Positions 17,025-34,275 of a DNA stretch of 64,000 bases are shown piece after piece. Position 1 is the stretch's first letter. Each line of letters starts with the position of its first letter. The position numbers were made by a program, and so were the translations under genes. Source of the DNA: Leucothrix mucor DSM 2157 (lineage in GTDB: Bacteria; Pseudomonadota; Gammaproteobacteria; Thiotrichales; Thiotrichaceae). The notes beneath the pieces were generated by a model, which searched no databases, was not told where the DNA came from, and saw nothing but the letters and a program-made list of their open reading frames with translations. Location: the NCBI RefSeq assembly GCF_000419525.1, contig NZ_ATTE01000001.1, forward strand, positions 1,426,001 through 1,490,000, written 5' to 3'.

Positions 17025-19190
17025 ATGTCTGAACACGAACAACGTGATGCCGCCGCCGAGAATTTGGCCGCAGCGACAGAAGCCATGCAGCAAAATTTCC
17101 AACATATCCAAGATTTAGTAAAGGATTTTGTTTCGTCTAAAGAAAGCAAAAACCTGGACCCATTTAATCTGTCTGAAGCATACTCAGAATGGTTAAAAGC
17201 AGTCAGTAGCGACCCGAAGAAACTGATTGATGCCAATATGCAATTTTGGCAGGACTCAGTCGCACTGACACAGCAAGTATTTAACTCCATGTTAGGGCAG
17301 GCTGCGCCACCAGTTATTACTGAGAATGCAGGCGATCGCCGCTTTAAGCATGAGGAGTGGAACAACAACCCAGTCTTTGGCACCATCAAACAGTCTTACC
17401 TGCTGACATCCAAGTGGATGCGCGATGTGGTGACTGATGTTCAAGGTTTGGATGAGAAAACCGCTGAAAAAGTTGAGTTCTTCACAGAGCGTTATTTGGA
17501 TGCGTTGTCGCCAACTAACTTTGCGGCGACTAACCCTGCTGTTATCGAAAAAGTGCTGGAAACTAAAGGTGAGAACCTGGTTAATGGCCTGAAAAACATG
17601 ATGGCGGACCTGGATACAGGTACCGGCCAGCTAAACATCAAAATGACGGACACTGAAGCCTTTGTTTTGGGTGAAAACGTTGGTGCGACACCAGGTAAAG
17701 TGGTTTTCCAAAACCGCATGTTCCAGTTAATTCAGTACACGCCGACGACGGATAAAGTACTGAAGCGTCCAATGCTGATCGTACCGCCTTGGATCAATAA
17801 GTTTTACATTCTGGATTTGCAGCCTAAGAACTCATTGCTGAAATGGCTGACGGATCAAGGCCACACTGTATTTGTTGTGTCTTGGGTTAATCCGGATGAG
17901 ACTTATGGTGATGTTAGCTTTGAAAACTACATGACTGAAGGCACGCTGGTTGCTGTGGATGCGGTTGAGAAAATCACCGGCCAAAGCGAAATGAATGCGA
18001 TTGGTTACTGCATCGGCGGTACGCTGATGAGTTTGACGCTTTCTTACATGAAGCAGAAAAACGATGATCGTATCAAGAGTATTACCTTCTTCACAACGAT
18101 GCTCGACTTCTCTGATCCAGGTGAGTTAGGCGTCTTTATTGATGAAGGCCAGCTGCAGAATCTTGAATCAAGAATGAATGATCAGGGTTATTTGGATGGC
18201 GCGGGCATGTCTGGCGCATTCAACCTGATGCGTGCCAATGACTTGATTTGGTCTTTCTACATCAGCAACTACCTGTTGGGCAATGATTCACGTCCATTTG
18301 ATTTGCTGTTCTGGAACTCTGATTCAACGCGTATGCCCGCTAAGATGCACTCTTGGTACCTACGTAATCTGTATCTGGAAAACAAGCTGTGCAAGCCACA
18401 AGCTCTGAGTGTTGCAGGTGTTGATGTTGATCTGTCTAAGATTGATATTCCAGCATGCTTTATCTCTGCGGCAGACGATCACATTGCGCCATGGTTATCG
18501 ACTTATAAAGGTGCCAAGCTGCTAGGTGGCAAAGTTCGCTTTATTCTGGGTGGTTCTGGTCACATTGCGGGTATCGTTAATCCACCAACACAGGAAAAAT
18601 ACGGCTACCGCATGACGGATGATTTGCCGGATGATCCAGTCGCATGGGCAGATGATGCTGAGCAATTCACTGGTTCTTGGTGGCCTGAGTGGGAGCGTTG
18701 GGTTCGTTCACAAGATGACTCAACGATTGCCGCACGTATTCCAGGTGCTGGTCCTCTGAAAGTGATCGAGGATGCACCGGGTACTTATGTGAAGTGTAAG
18801 AAGGGTGAGCCTGTTCCGAAGCTTGAGTACACTGTTTTAGAGCCAGTTGCTAAAAAAGCACCAGTGCGTAAAACAGCGGCTAAAAAGCCAGCAGTGAAAA
18901 AAGCACCGGCTAAGCCTGCGGCAACTAAGTCGACAGCAACGAAAACGACTGCGGCTAAGTCTGCAACGGCTTCAAAGACGGCAGCTACTAAGCCATCAAC
19001 TGCGACTAAGAGTACTGCAACTAAAGTAGTGGCTAAGCCGAAAGCTGAGACTAAGCCAACGGCAAAGGCAACTCCAGCTGAGCCAACAAAGCCAGTCGCA
19101 CCAAAGGCCGAAGCACCTGCTGCTAAGCCTGCAACAGATGCTGTTCCAAAGGCACCTGAAGCTCCAAAGAACGATAACGATCAGTCGTAA
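17025..19190 (+). CDS. phaC: Class I poly(3-hydroxyalkanoate) synthase with Lys/Ala-rich C-terminal tail
   Basis: A 721-residue granule-bound enzyme polymerising 3-hydroxyacyl-CoA. An N-terminal helical region (1-200) precedes the alpha/beta-hydrolase core. The catalytic triad is visible: Cys329 in the lipase-like box AIGYCIGGT, Asp485 in AADDHIAPW and His513 in GSGHIAG. Class I synthases are usually near 590-600 residues; here the fold ends near residue 605 and a 113-residue tail (609-721) follows. The tail is almost only Ala, Lys, Thr, Pro and Val in AAKK/AAKP-like units and ends acidic. It resembles the histone-H1-like part of the phasin PhaF, so it may bind nucleic acid. ATG 17025 has AAAGGA seven bases upstream. 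A terminator follows. Confidence 0.93.
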   Translation: MSEHEQRDAAAENLAAATEAMQQNFQHIQDLVKDFVSSKESKNLDPFNLSEAYSEWLKAVSSDPKKLIDANMQFWQDSVALTQQVFNSMLGQAAPPVITENAGDRRFKHEEWNNNPVFGTIKQSYLLTSKWMRDVVTDVQGLDEKTAEKVEFFTERYLDALSPTNFAATNPAVIEKVLETKGENLVNGLKNMMADLDTGTGQLNIKMTDTEAFVLGENVGATPGKVVFQNRMFQLIQYTPTTDKVLKRPMLIVPPWINKFYILDLQPKNSLLKWLTDQGHTVFVVSWVNPDETYGDVSFENYMTEGTLVAVDAVEKITGQSEMNAIGYCIGGTLMSLTLSYMKQKNDDRIKSITFFTTMLDFSDPGELGVFIDEGQLQNLESRMNDQGYLDGAGMSGAFNLMRANDLIWSFYISNYLLGNDSRPFDLLFWNSDSTRMPAKMHSWYLRNLYLENKLCKPQALSVAGVDVDLSKIDIPACFISAADDHIAPWLSTYKGAKLLGGKVRFILGGSGHIAGIVNPPTQEKYGYRMTDDLPDDPVAWADDAEQFTGSWWPEWERWVRSQDDSTIAARIPGAGPLKVIEDAPGTYVKCKKGEPVPKLEYTVLEPVAKKAPVRKTAAKKPAVKKAPAKPAATKSTATKTTAAKSATASKTAATKPSTATKSTATKVVAKPKAETKPTAKATPAEPTKPVAPKAEAPAAKPATDAVPKAPEAPKNDNDQS

Positions 19191-19204: not shown

Positions 19205-19235
19205 AAAAAAGCTCCCAATTTGGGAGCTTTTTTAT
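19205..19235. terminator. Bidirectional terminator between phaC and the chemosensory operon
   Basis: AAAAAAGCTCCCA and TGGGAGCTTTTTT form a perfect 13-bp stem with a three-base loop. The A-run and T-run on its two sides let it work in both directions, for phaC and for the convergent response regulator. Confidence 0.9.
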
Positions 19236-31195: not shown

Positions 31196-32128
31196 TTAGA
31201 TATTCATTAATACTTTGAGGTGTGCAACGACGCTGCGGGCAAGCGCCGAGGTGTCGTAGCCGCCTTCTAGTAATGAGATAATGCGGCCTTCGCTATACTC
31301 GTCAGCAATCTTACGCAACTCTTTGGTGACCCAAGCGTAGTCTGCTTCAACTAAGCGCAAACCCGCCATTTCATCTTCAAGGTGAGCATCGAAGCCTGCC
31401 GAAATGATAACTAGCTGAGGTTTAAATGCATTGAGTTCTGGCAGCCAATGCTCTGTGATGGTCTCACGAAATTCTGCACCACCTGCACCTTCCGGGAGTG
31501 GGGCATTAATTAAGAAGCCGGGCTTGCTAGGCAATGCGCGCTCTGGATAGAGCGGATGCTGATAGGTTGAGCAGAACAAAATTTGCGGGTCATCGCCCAC
31601 AATATCTTCAGTACCATTACCGTGGTGTACATCAAAATCGACAATCGCAACACGCTCAAGCCCATAATCACGAACCGCATGGCGAGCAGCAATGGCGGCG
31701 TTATTAAAGAAGCAAAAACCCATCGCAGCATCACGCTCAGCATGGTGGCCTGCCGGTCGCACATTACAAAACACACGTTTCTCAGTCTTGTCGCCCAATA
31801 CCTTATCCACCGCAGAGATCGCGGAGCCCGCCGACCGTAACGCGGCCTGCAGGGTAAATTCATTCATAAAGGTATCGGGGTCGATATGAGCCATCATCGA
31901 GTCATCAGGTGGTGACTTCCCGAAAATGTAATCGATATGTTTGCGGCTATGAGCCAACTCAAGCTGTTCCGGTGTGGCTAATGGGGCATCATAATAATGC
32001 ATGAAGTCCCCGATTCCAGAAGTTATCAGCTGATCTTCAATTGCCCGTATGCGTTGGGGTCTTTCTGGGTGGCCTATCCCCATCTCATGTTTCAGGCAAT
32101 CACTGTGCGTAATGATTGCTATTGTCAT
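31196..32128 (-). CDS. Histone-deacetylase-family (AcuC/class II-like) amidohydrolase
   Basis: A 310-residue zinc deacetylase. Visible motifs are HPERPQRIRAI at the N-terminus, the His-His active-site pair in RPAGHHAERD, the zinc ligands in AIVDFDVHHGNGTED and SAGFDAHLED, and the tyrosine loop LLEGGYD near the end. Bacterial relatives include AcuC, which deacetylates acetyl-CoA synthetase, and acetylpolyamine amidohydrolases. The start overlaps the phaR stop by four bases, so it is co-transcribed with and translationally coupled to phaR. With acs and a Pat-type gene nearby, removal of acetyl groups from Acs is the most attractive role, but this is inference. Confidence 0.9.
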   Translation of the reverse strand: MTIAIITHSDCLKHEMGIGHPERPQRIRAIEDQLITSGIGDFMHYYDAPLATPEQLELAHSRKHIDYIFGKSPPDDSMMAHIDPDTFMNEFTLQAALRSAGSAISAVDKVLGDKTEKRVFCNVRPAGHHAERDAAMGFCFFNNAAIAARHAVRDYGLERVAIVDFDVHHGNGTEDIVGDDPQILFCSTYQHPLYPERALPSKPGFLINAPLPEGAGGAEFRETITEHWLPELNAFKPQLVIISAGFDAHLEDEMAGLRLVEADYAWVTKELRKIADEYSEGRIISLLEGGYDTSALARSVVAHLKVLMNI

Positions 32129-32595
32129 TTTTTGTTGGTGGTATCGTCCTGATTAGCGGTTTTAAAGAAACGATCCTGCACTTGCTTCCACATTTCCAGA
32201 TTTTTAGCAGTTGACTGCTTCCAGAAATCCATCGGATTAGTTGTGATCAAATCCTTCATCTGCTGTTGCATGGTGACCTGTTGTTGATGGAAAAATTGCA
32301 GATTTTTGTTCATGAAGTCACTAAAACCTTCACGAGAGTTTTCACCATAATAACGAATGAATTTTTCAAGGCTGTCTGTGGTGAAGAGCGGCTCGTCATT
32401 CGACTCCTGTTCCAAAATAATTTGTAACAGAATACTGCGAGTAATATCGAGTTCGGTTTGACTATCTATGACCTTAATTTCAAGGCCATCTTCAATCATA
32501 GTTTTTATATCAACTAGCTTGATATAACGGCTACCTTCCGTATCGTAAAGTCTGCGGTTGGGGTATTTTTTAATTAGACGTATTGCTTGATCCAT
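32125..32595 (-). CDS. phaR: PHA synthesis repressor PhaR
   Basis: 156 residues. The N-terminal PHB/PHA accumulation regulator DNA-binding domain (IKKYPNRRLYDTEGSRYI, residues about 7-25) is diagnostic, followed by the second conserved block (ILLQIILEQE) and a Gln/Met-rich helical tail that in homologues binds PHA granules. PhaR represses phasin and PHA genes and is titrated away by the growing granule. It lies divergent from the PhaE-like/phaC pair and overlaps a deacetylase gene. Candidate operators are the TGC-N3-GCA sites near phaC and phaB. Confidence 0.92.
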   Translation of the reverse strand: MDQAIRLIKKYPNRRLYDTEGSRYIKLVDIKTMIEDGLEIKVIDSQTELDITRSILLQIILEQESNDEPLFTTDSLEKFIRYYGENSREGFSDFMNKNLQFFHQQQVTMQQQMKDLITTNPMDFWKQSTAKNLEMWKQVQDRFFKTANQDDTTNKK

Positions 32596-32687
32596 AAAAA
32601 CTCTTATTCCTTTCCGATGAATCCAAATAGGTTCATTCGTTGATGTTATGTATACTACTACAAATTGAGCGCGCGGTATAAGGTAGA

Positions 32688-33200
32688 ATGAAGCCAGCAG
32701 ACGATTCTAATTCCTCACAAACAGCAGTAGCGGAACCGTTGATTGTGAGAAAAATGCGCTATGCTGGCGTGGCGTACCAACAGTTTCTGTTAAGTCTGGC
32801 GGCCGATGAGGCAATGATCGAACAAGGGCAGCAGTTATTCGATCAGCACTATCAGTGGCTTGAGCTTACAACGGAAAAAATTCAGCAAGAAAAACAAATA
32901 AATATCGGTGTTTCTGAAAAGCAGCTTAGAGATTTTTTAGAGACACTACAAACGTTTCAAAATGAGTTTATGCAGTTTTATCAGCTTCTCTTTATGCAGT
33001 TTAAACAGCAGCAATCGGCGTTGATTGCGAGTAATCCAAAGCAGGCATTTAGCCAATGGATTGCGTTGTTTGATACTCAGTATTTGCAGTATGTTAGGCA
33101 AGAATCAGTGTGTCGCCATTATGCTAAAATATTGCAGCAAAGTAGTGAGCTAAATCGAGCATTACTTACACTAAAGTGCGTCGATAAAAAACGCGGTTAA
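32688..33200 (+). CDS. PhaE-like / phasin-like helical protein preceding class III PhaC
   Basis: 170 residues, predicted almost wholly helical and rich in Gln, Leu and Phe, with heptad-like stretches (EFMQFYQLLFMQFKQQQSAL). No motif is diagnostic to me; the assignment rests on position seven bases before a class III-type synthase gene and on composition. Class III synthases need the PhaE partner, but known PhaE proteins are about 350 residues, so this would be a short form. A phasin is the alternative. AAGGTAGA stands close to ATG 32688. Divergent from phaR. Confidence 0.5.
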   Translation: MKPADDSNSSQTAVAEPLIVRKMRYAGVAYQQFLLSLAADEAMIEQGQQLFDQHYQWLELTTEKIQQEKQINIGVSEKQLRDFLETLQTFQNEFMQFYQLLFMQFKQQQSALIASNPKQAFSQWIALFDTQYLQYVRQESVCRHYAKILQQSSELNRALLTLKCVDKKRG

Positions 33201-33207
33201 TGACCTG

Positions 33208-34275
33208 ATGAATATCCAATCTGAGGCTGATACGATGTTTGAACGCCTTGGCAATGCGTCATGGTTTTTACATCAGCAGGAAGCACCCTGGCGACCCACG
33301 TCAGCGCGCTCTTTAGTGTTGGATTTTCCGCTGGGTGAACTCTATCACTATCATCCGTTGCCAAGTGTTGACCCCTCCGGTGTCCCGAAGCCTCCCATGC
33401 TGATTGTGTATGCCATGGTAAACCGGCCTTCAATCCTCGATTTACACCCTGATACCTCAACGATTCGTGGCTTATTAGAGCAGGGCATTAGCGTCTATTT
33501 ACTGGAATGGAAAGCGCCTACTGTGTTGCATAGTGCATTGGGCTTGGGTGAGTACTTGCATCAGTCACTCGACCATTGTGTGGATTATATGCGTGACCTA
33601 TCGCAAGCGCCCAAGATTGATCTAATGGGGGTTTGCCAAGGCGGTGTCTTTGCGTTGTGTTATAGCGCCATGTTTCCCAAAAAAATCCGCGCTCTAGTGA
33701 CTACCGTAACGCCAGTGGATTTTCATACTGCAGACGATACGCTAAGCATGTGGGTACGCTATTTAGATTTGGAGACGGTGTGTGAGAAAGGCATGAATCT
33801 ATCGGGTGCTATGTTGGCTCAGGTATTTTTAACTTTAAAGCCTATGACGCTAAGTATTCAAAAATATCTGGATTTGCTGGATAGTGCCACGATTAAAGAC
33901 TCCACTAATGGCCAGCGCATGGCCGAGCGGTTTATGGCCATGGAGCAGTGGATTGAAGACTCGCCAGATCAGCCGGGTCGTTTGTTTAAAGAATTTGTGC
34001 ATCAGTGTTATCAGCAAAATGCCTTATGTGATGGGCGATTGGTGTTATCTGAGAAGGCTATCGACTTGAGAAAGCTGACAATGCCTGTCTTTAATATCTA
34101 TGCGTCTCGGGATCATTTGGTGCCGCCGGATTCATCCAAAGCGCTAAGCTCAATAGTCGATGCGAGGCTATATGAAGAACTGGCCGTAGAAACTGGCCAT
34201 ATTGGGATGTTTGTAGGAGGGCGCTCTTTAAGGCAAGTCCCTCTGGCGATTGCCGATTTTCTAAAACAGCTCTAA
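33208..34275 (+). CDS. phaC: Class III-type PHA synthase catalytic subunit
   Basis: 355 residues, the size of the Allochromatium class III PhaC (355) rather than class I/II enzymes (about 560-600). The alpha/beta-hydrolase core has nucleophile Cys143 in DLMGVCQGGVF, an Asp in YASRDHLVPP and His in TGHIGMFVGG; LLEQGISVYLLEWKAP precedes the core. It polymerises hydroxyacyl-CoA, normally as a PhaC-PhaE complex; the preceding small gene may supply PhaE. An alternative start at 33235 (MFERLGN) has GAGG upstream and cannot be excluded. This is the second synthase in the locus, alongside the class I enzyme at 17 kb. Confidence 0.9.
   Translation: MNIQSEADTMFERLGNASWFLHQQEAPWRPTSARSLVLDFPLGELYHYHPLPSVDPSGVPKPPMLIVYAMVNRPSILDLHPDTSTIRGLLEQGISVYLLEWKAPTVLHSALGLGEYLHQSLDHCVDYMRDLSQAPKIDLMGVCQGGVFALCYSAMFPKKIRALVTTVTPVDFHTADDTLSMWVRYLDLETVCEKGMNLSGAMLAQVFLTLKPMTLSIQKYLDLLDSATIKDSTNGQRMAERFMAMEQWIEDSPDQPGRLFKEFVHQCYQQNALCDGRLVLSEKAIDLRKLTMPVFNIYASRDHLVPPDSSKALSSIVDARLYEELAVETGHIGMFVGGRSLRQVPLAIADFLKQL

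What the first reader, a model, noticed from the sequence alone, without database searches (positions are those of the whole stretch)
18849..19190. Class I PHA synthase carrying a histone-H1-like Lys/Ala/Pro tail
The synthase fold ends near residue 605 and is followed by 113 residues of AAKK/AAKP-type sequence. In Pseudomonas a similar tail belongs to the phasin PhaF, which ties granules to the nucleoid and helps segregate them. Here the polymerising enzyme itself would bind DNA, merging synthesis and granule positioning in one protein.
Basis: partly seen in the sequence, partly recalled or inferred. Interest (0 to 1): 0.72.

Follow-up and report, generated by a model that had tools for sequence, protein, structure and literature searches.

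The report
Bioplastic synthase with disordered basic tail
A bacterial bioplastic-making enzyme really does carry a long, floppy, positively charged tail that its close relatives share (some with an extra nucleic-acid-binding-type module on the end), and it may tie storage granules to the chromosome, an idea already proposed for another genus but not shown for either.

Summary
ORF 17025-19190 (+, 721 aa) is a class I PHA synthase (TIGR01838, 761 bits, cut-off 622.65). Its fold ends near residue 609; the last 113 residues are a disordered Lys/Ala/Thr/Pro tail. It is real protein: two same-genus orthologues share it, often through different codons. In this genome an HC2 (H1-like) search finds only topoisomerase I and PhaC, both below cut-off.

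Long tails mark one PhaC clade (the Leucothrix/Thiothrix/Cocleimonas family plus a sister lineage); outside the family 3 of 99 class I-type synthases pass the same rule, two of them that sister lineage. In six relatives the arm ends in a helix-hairpin-helix (HhH) cap related to that of phasin PhaH. Some PhaE subunits carry arm, cap or both; one class III PhaC carries an arm.

Best reading: a nucleoid-DNA tether built into the synthase, doing what PhaM, PhaF or PhaH do elsewhere. DNA binding is not shown; such caps also sit on ribosomal-type and complex I proteins, and some Thiothrix tails are short or not net basic. A basic PhaC tail as DNA anchor is already proposed for Cobetia PhaC2, and an HhH described on Haloferax PhaC: a new variant of a known kind.

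The parts
17025..19190 (+). phaC, class I PHA synthase with C-terminal arm, 721 aa
   Evidence: TIGR01838 761.3 bits vs cut-off 622.65
18003..18020 (+). PhaC box GYCIGG (residues 327-332) with Cys329 (catalytic role recalled from the PhaC family)
   Evidence: C329, G331, G332 invariant in 15 aligned orthologues/paralogues
18774..18791 (+). APGTYV, end-of-fold motif, residues 584-589
   Evidence: solved PhaC chains align to residue 592 or 597
18849..19052 (+). basic half of the arm, residues 609-676, net +17, K/A/T-rich, predicted disordered
   Evidence: HC2 24 bits (below cut-off 40) over residues 608-702
19053..19187 (+). distal half of the arm, residues 677-721, P/A-rich, net +1
   Evidence: pLDDT about 30
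19210..19233 (+). inverted repeat followed by a T run just after the stop, probable terminator
   Evidence: read by eye; the scan did not list it

Best explanation
The 113-residue tail is a disordered, lysine-rich arm that lets the class I PHA synthase bind a polyanion, most likely nucleoid DNA and without sequence specificity. Nascent granules, which carry PhaC from the start, would thus be held on the nucleoid and shared out at division. This is the job of PhaM, PhaF or PhaH in other bacteria, built here into the polymerase. In the ancestor of this PhaC clade the arm probably ended in an HhH cap; the Leucothrix and Thiothrix lines lack the cap, Leucothrix keeping a long basic arm and Thiothrix shortening it. 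Shown: the arm, its predicted disorder, its clade-wide presence, the HhH cap in relatives, similar appendages on PhaE. Inferred: DNA as the ligand, granule positioning, cap loss.
For: Arm of 41-250 aa (cap included where present) after APGxYV in 20 of the 21 family genomes that have this orthologue (TIGR01838 757-781 bits); the exception is G078, 19 aa. One clade of 23 rows holds these, L068, L112 and L160 (ultrafast bootstrap 83, SH-aLRT 100). HHH_5 at or above cut-off in 4 of 4 caps tested; the NCBIfam PhaH model hits 5 of 5 capped PhaC tails at E 2e-9 to 8e-17, as partial matches far below its cut-off of 250 bits. In 29 of 33 family genomes with a synthase hit, at least one synthase subunit has a basic arm or HhH; 3 more pass a shorter rule, 1 (G079) has none (rule set after seeing sequences). 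PF05597 phasin: 0 of 24 family genomes. PhaM: 0 of 63 over cut-off, 2 weak sub-threshold hits. The only other HC2-like stretch found in this genome is the tail of topoisomerase I. PhaM, PhaF and PhaH bind granules by the N-terminus and DNA by the C-terminus (PMC13052382 passages).
Against: No DNA-binding test. HC2 and H1-like models score below cut-off. Thiothrix arms L013, L015, L146 have net charge -2, -1, -1, and L145 is 19 aa with net 0. The HhH type also sits on proteins that read as bL21 and uS2 in this family and phylum; in 3 of the 5 capped PhaC tails an L21 or NuoE model scores better than PhaH; its best PDB sequence matches are a complex I subunit and a photosynthetic reaction-centre subunit; Foldseek gave no hit at E <= 0.001. 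The Leucothrix enzyme itself has no cap. Four Phasin_2 proteins exist in the genome and could position granules. The ancestral-cap reading rests on a tree whose four sub-clades are unresolved and whose root is a midpoint.
Confidence: 0.5

Rival explanations
1. The arm binds a different polyanion or surface: polyphosphate, RNA/ribosomes, or acidic partners such as the acidic synthase core (pI 4.8) or phasins, thereby regulating activity or granule composition rather than position.
For: Core -25 and tail +17 invite electrostatic contact. Caps of this type occur on proteins that read as bL21 and uS2. AlgP, whose DNA-binding domain resembles that of PhaF, spaces polyphosphate granules (PMC13052382 passages).
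Against: The arm varies strongly in length and sequence between genera, which fits nonspecific binding better than a fixed protein partner. Known granule proteins with such tails bind DNA (PMC13052382, PMC5658603 passages).
Confidence: 0.25
2. The arm is an entropic, charged brush on the granule surface that keeps granules apart and the enzyme soluble, with no specific ligand.
For: Predicted fully disordered; the distal 45 residues are nearly neutral and P/A-rich; some Thiothrix arms are net neutral.
Against: A lysine cluster persists at the end of 9 of the 10 Thiothrix arms read (by eye), and the HhH caps of relatives are folded; a brush needs neither.
Confidence: 0.13
3. Lineage drift: this family tends to grow K/A/P C-terminal extensions and HhH caps on many proteins, and the PhaC tail has no selected role.
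For: Arm plus cap on proteins reading as bL21 and uS2, K/A tail on topoisomerase I, fast change of arm sequence beyond the genus: against L009, 72 of 300 shuffles reach the score once the first 20 residues are removed.
Against: HC2-like stretches are rare in this genome (2 places) and 1 of 47 window genes has such a tail; the tail is conserved at protein level within the genus and present across a whole clade.
Confidence: 0.12

Closest known systems
Cobetia PhaC2 (PMC8686332; section 26 and passages read)
   Same: Class I PhaC with basic disordered C-terminal extension (core pI 4.6-4.9, tail pI about 10.1-10.4), weak HC2 hits, proposed in silico as nucleoid anchor in place of PhaM
   Different: Extension 380 aa in strain MC34 against 132 here; different genus; no HhH cap reported for Cobetia in what I read. 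Not placed in my tree, so a separate origin is untested
PhaF phasin of Pseudomonas (PMC5658603 passages)
   Same: Histone-like basic C-terminal DNA-binding region on a granule protein thought largely disordered when unbound
   Different: N-terminus is a phasin, not a polymerase; eight AAKP-like repeats against one exact AAKP here
PhaM of Cupriavidus necator (PMC13052382 passages)
   Same: Links PhaC and granules to the nucleoid with a histone-like C-terminus
   Different: Separate protein that acts on PhaC in trans; no above-cut-off PhaM in the 63 family genomes
PhaH phasin of Caulobacter (PMC13052382 passages; NCBIfam NF045508)
   Same: HhH domain related to the caps on the PhaC arms of Cocleimonas and other relatives
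   Different: A phasin; the Leucothrix PhaC has no HhH
Haloferax mediterranei PhaC (PMC12028471 passages)
   Same: Long disordered C-terminus, there with an HhH, on a synthase subunit
   Different: Archaeal PhaEC synthase; the paper says the domain is absent in PhaC from bacteria, which L004, L005, L007, L068, L112 and L160 contradict, as may the H3TH hit that PMC8686332 mentions for Halomonas sp. O-1 PhaC2

Membership tests
Class I PHA synthase | TIGR01838 above cut-off and PhaC box with Cys | tested here: met
   761.3 vs 622.65 bits; GYCIGG at residues 327-332
Histone H1-like HC2 / NF038053 | Curated score cut-off | tested here: not met
   HC2 24.0 vs 40 bits; NF038053 20 vs 80 bits
PhaF-type phasin | N-terminal phasin domain PF05597 | tested here: not met
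   not among Pfam hits at E <= 1; 0 of 24 family genomes
PhaF-type phasin | Series of AAKP-like repeats (eight in PhaF, PMC5658603 passage) | tested here: not met
   one exact AAKP, three AAK; looser AAKP-like spellings were not counted
PhaM | NF043076 match | tested here: not met
   not among NCBIfam hits at E <= 1; 0 of 63 family genomes over cut-off, 2 weak hits below it in incomplete genomes (no control genome rang, so sensitivity unproved)
PhaH-type HhH granule protein | C-terminal HhH domain | tested here: not met
   absent from this tail; present in six related PhaC
Nucleoid-tethered granule protein (function of the above) | Binds DNA and positions granules | not testable with these tools
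   needs binding assay and imaging

The most novel reading that the evidence does not exclude
In this family the nucleoid tether of the PHA granule belongs to the synthase complex itself and has moved between its subunits: arm with or without HhH on class I PhaC (Leucothrix, Cocleimonas, Thiothrix and others), HhH with or without arm on class III PhaE in genomes whose class I PhaC is tailless, not found or cut off (G069, G070, G071, G073; two of these genomes are under 80% complete), arm alone on many Thiothrix PhaE, and arm on class III PhaC in one Leucothrix-genus genome without a class I hit (G006). It would replace PhaM/PhaF/PhaH, so that every granule starts on DNA. Not a strict swap: G015, G014 and G030 carry appendages on both PhaC and PhaE.
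Probability: 0.3. Interest if true: 0.7.

Novelty: new variant of a known kind. Interest (0 to 1): 0.5.

Why it matters
If the arm binds DNA, polymer synthesis and chromosome-based granule inheritance sit in one protein, and granule position could be set simply by which synthase is expressed, which is useful for engineered PHA production. The data also show bacterial class I PhaC proteins ending in an HhH domain, against the statement in PMC12028471 that it is absent in PhaC from bacteria, and suggest the tether is a module that several subunits of the synthase have acquired. It makes a clean prediction: truncating the arm should free granules from the nucleoid without changing catalysis.

Tried and rejected
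Frame or annotation artefact: rejected, since the tail is open and conserved at protein level in L002 and L003. DNA-repeat slippage as sole cause: only two short weak repeats. Tail found only in this strain: rejected. Tail general to class I PhaC: rejected; 3 of 99 outside class I-type synthases pass the rule, although 37 of the 99 had been fetched mainly because of long frames. A PhaF- or PhaM-type phasin doing the job in the same genome: not found. A second copy of the tail elsewhere in the genome by protein search: none, though low complexity limits that search. HhH in this genome on a PHA protein: the two hits lie in one 687-aa frame of acidic repeats with no PHA link seen. Foldseek with the capped-tail model gave no hit at E <= 0.001. 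Papers on PhaE with a DNA-binding or histone-like tail: the listings showed nothing on the point (one search was swamped by unrelated words; 25 of 1,448 listed). PHA in Leucothrix: one paper listed, not read. A first strict count on the last 60 residues only missed basic parts lying earlier in long arms, so I recounted on the whole extension. That recount sets the tail start by rule of thumb: for PhaE, alignment end minus 25, or the last 170 or 260 residues where HhH was present. (order) repeated (same 63 genomes).

Limits and rows dropped: searches scored at most three candidates a genome and did not list all matches (one search's list stops at about 719 bits), and the two samples overlap, so other armed PhaC may have been missed. 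In one search, 14 of the 80 genome-contig loci lacked the strict end motif and are not in the count; the printed ends of all 14 show a variant motif followed by at most about 12 residues. Four of them were asked for in the tree and lost (L073, L100, L104, L131). Of the 40 stretches fetched, three (L174-L176) held no class I PhaC in the frame read. The class I PhaC of G071 is cut by a contig end and was not judged; that of G062 was read from L112.

Full report
What is there. The ORF at 17025-19190 on the + strand encodes 721 residues. It is a class I PHA synthase: TIGR01838 761.3 bits against a cut-off of 622.65, PhaC_N and alpha/beta-hydrolase domains in Pfam, and PhaC box GYCIGG at residues 327-332, its Cys invariant in a 15-row alignment. 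Solved PhaC chains align up to residue 592 or 597, and the end motif APGTYV is at 584-589. An AlphaFold model built on 31 rows (mean pLDDT 76) is mostly confident over the core and falls below 50 from 610 to 721.

Composition. Residues 593-721 have 26 Lys, 1 Arg, 7 Glu, 3 Asp, 32 Ala, 19 Pro, 19 Thr; net +17, pI 10.16, against -25 and pI 4.76 for the core. The charge lies in residues 609-676; the last 45 are near neutral. HC2 (24 of 40 bits) and an H1-like model (20 of 80) match below cut-off, so 'histone-H1-like' describes composition, not membership. In the whole genome, HC2 at E <= 1 finds two places: the tail of a protein that reads as DNA topoisomerase I, and this one. Among 47 window genes only phaC passes a simple basic-tail rule.

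Is it real protein? Yes. Against two orthologues of the same genus the tails align above all 300 shuffles, and 36 of 62 and 26 of 52 identical residues are encoded by different codons. Beyond the genus the arm keeps its type but less of its sequence: once the first 20 residues are removed, 72 of 300 shuffles reach the score against L009 and 6 of 300 against L011.

Where the organism sits. G003, of the same genus, is Leucothrix pacifica JCM 18388: its PhaC contig has the same length, 81,782 bases, as the named record. By the same matching, G019 is Thiothrix sp. UBA5583 and G062 a Cocleimonas bin. Names such as Thiothrix for genus g2 follow from these matches.

Distribution. Of the 57 genomes searched first (own included), 26 had a match, one of them (G004) a topoisomerase-type tail only; the family holds 63 genomes, 33 with a TIGR01838 match of any class. 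Of the 21 family genomes with the armed orthologue type (757-781 bits), 20 have 41-250 aa after APGxYV and G078 has 19. Other class I copies in the family stop 1-5 residues after the motif (L017, L018, L028-L030, L151-L154, L157). In genome contigs (best 80 loci), 66 of 80 carry the strict motif; 5 have long arms (L065-L068, L112) and 61 have at most 13 residues; the other 14 show short ends too. In samples of 370 genomes of the class and 397 of the phylum (lists capped) I fetched 40 stretches, chosen mostly for long open frames, 37 with a class I-type PhaC. Of these only L160 has a long arm and L197 one of about 40 residues. Over both outside sets, 3 of 99 class I-type PhaC pass the arm rule: L068, L160, L197.

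The HhH cap. In L004, L005, L007, L068, L112 and L160 the arm ends in about 65 residues beginning DDLT, in L112 with a further short basic end. HHH_5 (PF14520) is at or above its cut-off in 4 of 4 tested (27.1, 37.2, 38.2, 28.5 against 27). The six align with 16 invariant columns, and the AlphaFold model of the L068 end is helical with block pLDDT 86-90 over most of the cap. The NCBIfam model of the phasin PhaH matches 5 of 5 capped tails tested at E 2e-9 to 8e-17, as partial matches far under the whole-protein cut-off; in 3 of the 5 an L21 or NuoE model scores better. A phylum-wide search with the cap also found a PF05597 phasin with this cap (L274).

Tree. In a 48-row PMSF tree of the core, the armed family synthases with L068, L112 and L160 form one clade of 23 rows (ultrafast bootstrap 83, SH-aLRT 100; not starred); L197, on a long branch, falls outside. 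HhH sits in two separate starred groups, L068+L160 and Cocleimonas with L007. The order of the four groups is unresolved and the root is a midpoint, so ancestral cap with later loss is the simpler reading but not proved.

Other subunits. In G071 and G073 the class III PhaE continues into a K/A/P arm of roughly 130-150 residues and then an HhH cap; in G069, G070 and G015 PhaE ends in the cap; PHA_synth_III_E and HHH_5 both match in the G071 protein. Of 16 Thiothrix-genus PhaE read, 10 have a basic K/A/P stretch by the 30-residue rule, 3 by the 20-residue rule, 3 not. G006, a Leucothrix-genus genome without class I hit, has a K/A/P tail on class III PhaC. By one rule (30-residue window, net charge >= 5, >= 75% K/A/P/T/S, or HhH), 29 of 33 family genomes have such an appendage on at least one synthase subunit; 3 more have it by a 20-residue rule; G079 does not. 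The rule was set after seeing sequences and the genomes are related, so this is a pattern, not a test. Redundancy also occurs: G015 has caps on both PhaC and PhaE, and G014 and G030 have arms on both.

Known tethers. No PF05597 phasin in 24 family genomes, no PhaM over cut-off in 63, with two weak hits in incomplete genomes (no control genome rang, so its sensitivity is unproved here). Phasin_2 proteins are present: four in this genome, without long tails, one ending in about 28 residues rich in A/P/K. A review states that PhaM, PhaF and PhaH each bind granules by the N-terminus and DNA nonspecifically by the C-terminus, two by histone-like domains and one by HhH (PMC13052382, passages).

Against the DNA reading. 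The HhH type also caps proteins that read as bL21 and uS2 in this family and elsewhere, and models for L21, S2 and NuoE match the same tails. Its best solved sequence relatives are a complex I subunit and a reaction-centre subunit (E 6e-10 and 5e-9); DNA polymerases, RadA, topoisomerase V and ribosomal L32e follow at E 0.002-0.06. Foldseek gave nothing at E <= 0.001. So the cap does not prove DNA binding. Three Thiothrix arms are slightly acidic overall (L013, L015, L146), though they keep lysines at the very end, and L145 has lost the basic end.

Prior art. Cobetia PhaC2 has the same design with a 380-residue extension, and the authors propose, in silico, that it binds the carbonosome to DNA in place of PhaM; they also mention an H3TH-type hit in Halomonas sp. 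O-1 PhaC2 (PMC8686332, section 26 and passages). PMC12028471 describes an HhH at the end of Haloferax PhaC and calls it absent in PhaC from bacteria (passages). The six HhH-capped bacterial PhaC above contradict that. In the listings of the searches made here and the four papers I looked into I saw no report of the Leucothrix-family arms or of arms and caps on PhaE; most listed papers were not opened and subscription papers are mostly not held.

Verdict. Observation confirmed; interpretation plausible, partly supported, and already proposed for another genus. Best reading: a DNA tether built into the synthase (0.5).

Noticed in passing
window 32125-34275: Second PHA locus in the window: phaR (32125-32595, -, TIGR01848 above cut-off), a 170-aa ORF without Pfam or NCBIfam match at E <= 0.01 (32688-33200, +) directly before a class III-type PhaC (33208-34275, +, TIGR01836 339.5 bits, under its cut-off of 365.3). 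The 170-aa protein may be a divergent PhaE-like partner.
   Followed up: partly
L230, L231 (PhaE ORFs), L229, L232, L233: Class III PhaE subunits ending in an HhH domain, two of them after a K/A/P arm of roughly 130-150 residues.
   Followed up: partly
L236 4920-6293: Class III PhaC of a Leucothrix-genus genome (G006) with a K/A/P tail of about 70 residues, in a genome without a class I PhaC hit.
   Followed up: partly
L271 (G000:C1 near 502273-502590): A protein of the same genome that reads as DNA topoisomerase I carries a long K/A/P C-terminal tail.
   Followed up: partly
L203, L206, L216, L219: Proteins reading as ribosomal bL21 and uS2 in family genomes end in a K/A/P arm plus the same HhH type.
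   Followed up: no
L234 553-2613: 687-aa frame with an N-terminal hydrophobic stretch, long acidic repeats of LPDV type and two HhH domains in the window's own genome.
   Followed up: no
L264, L265, L266, L268, L269, L270: PhaE proteins of genomes outside the family also end in basic tails, one over 200 residues (L266).
   Followed up: no
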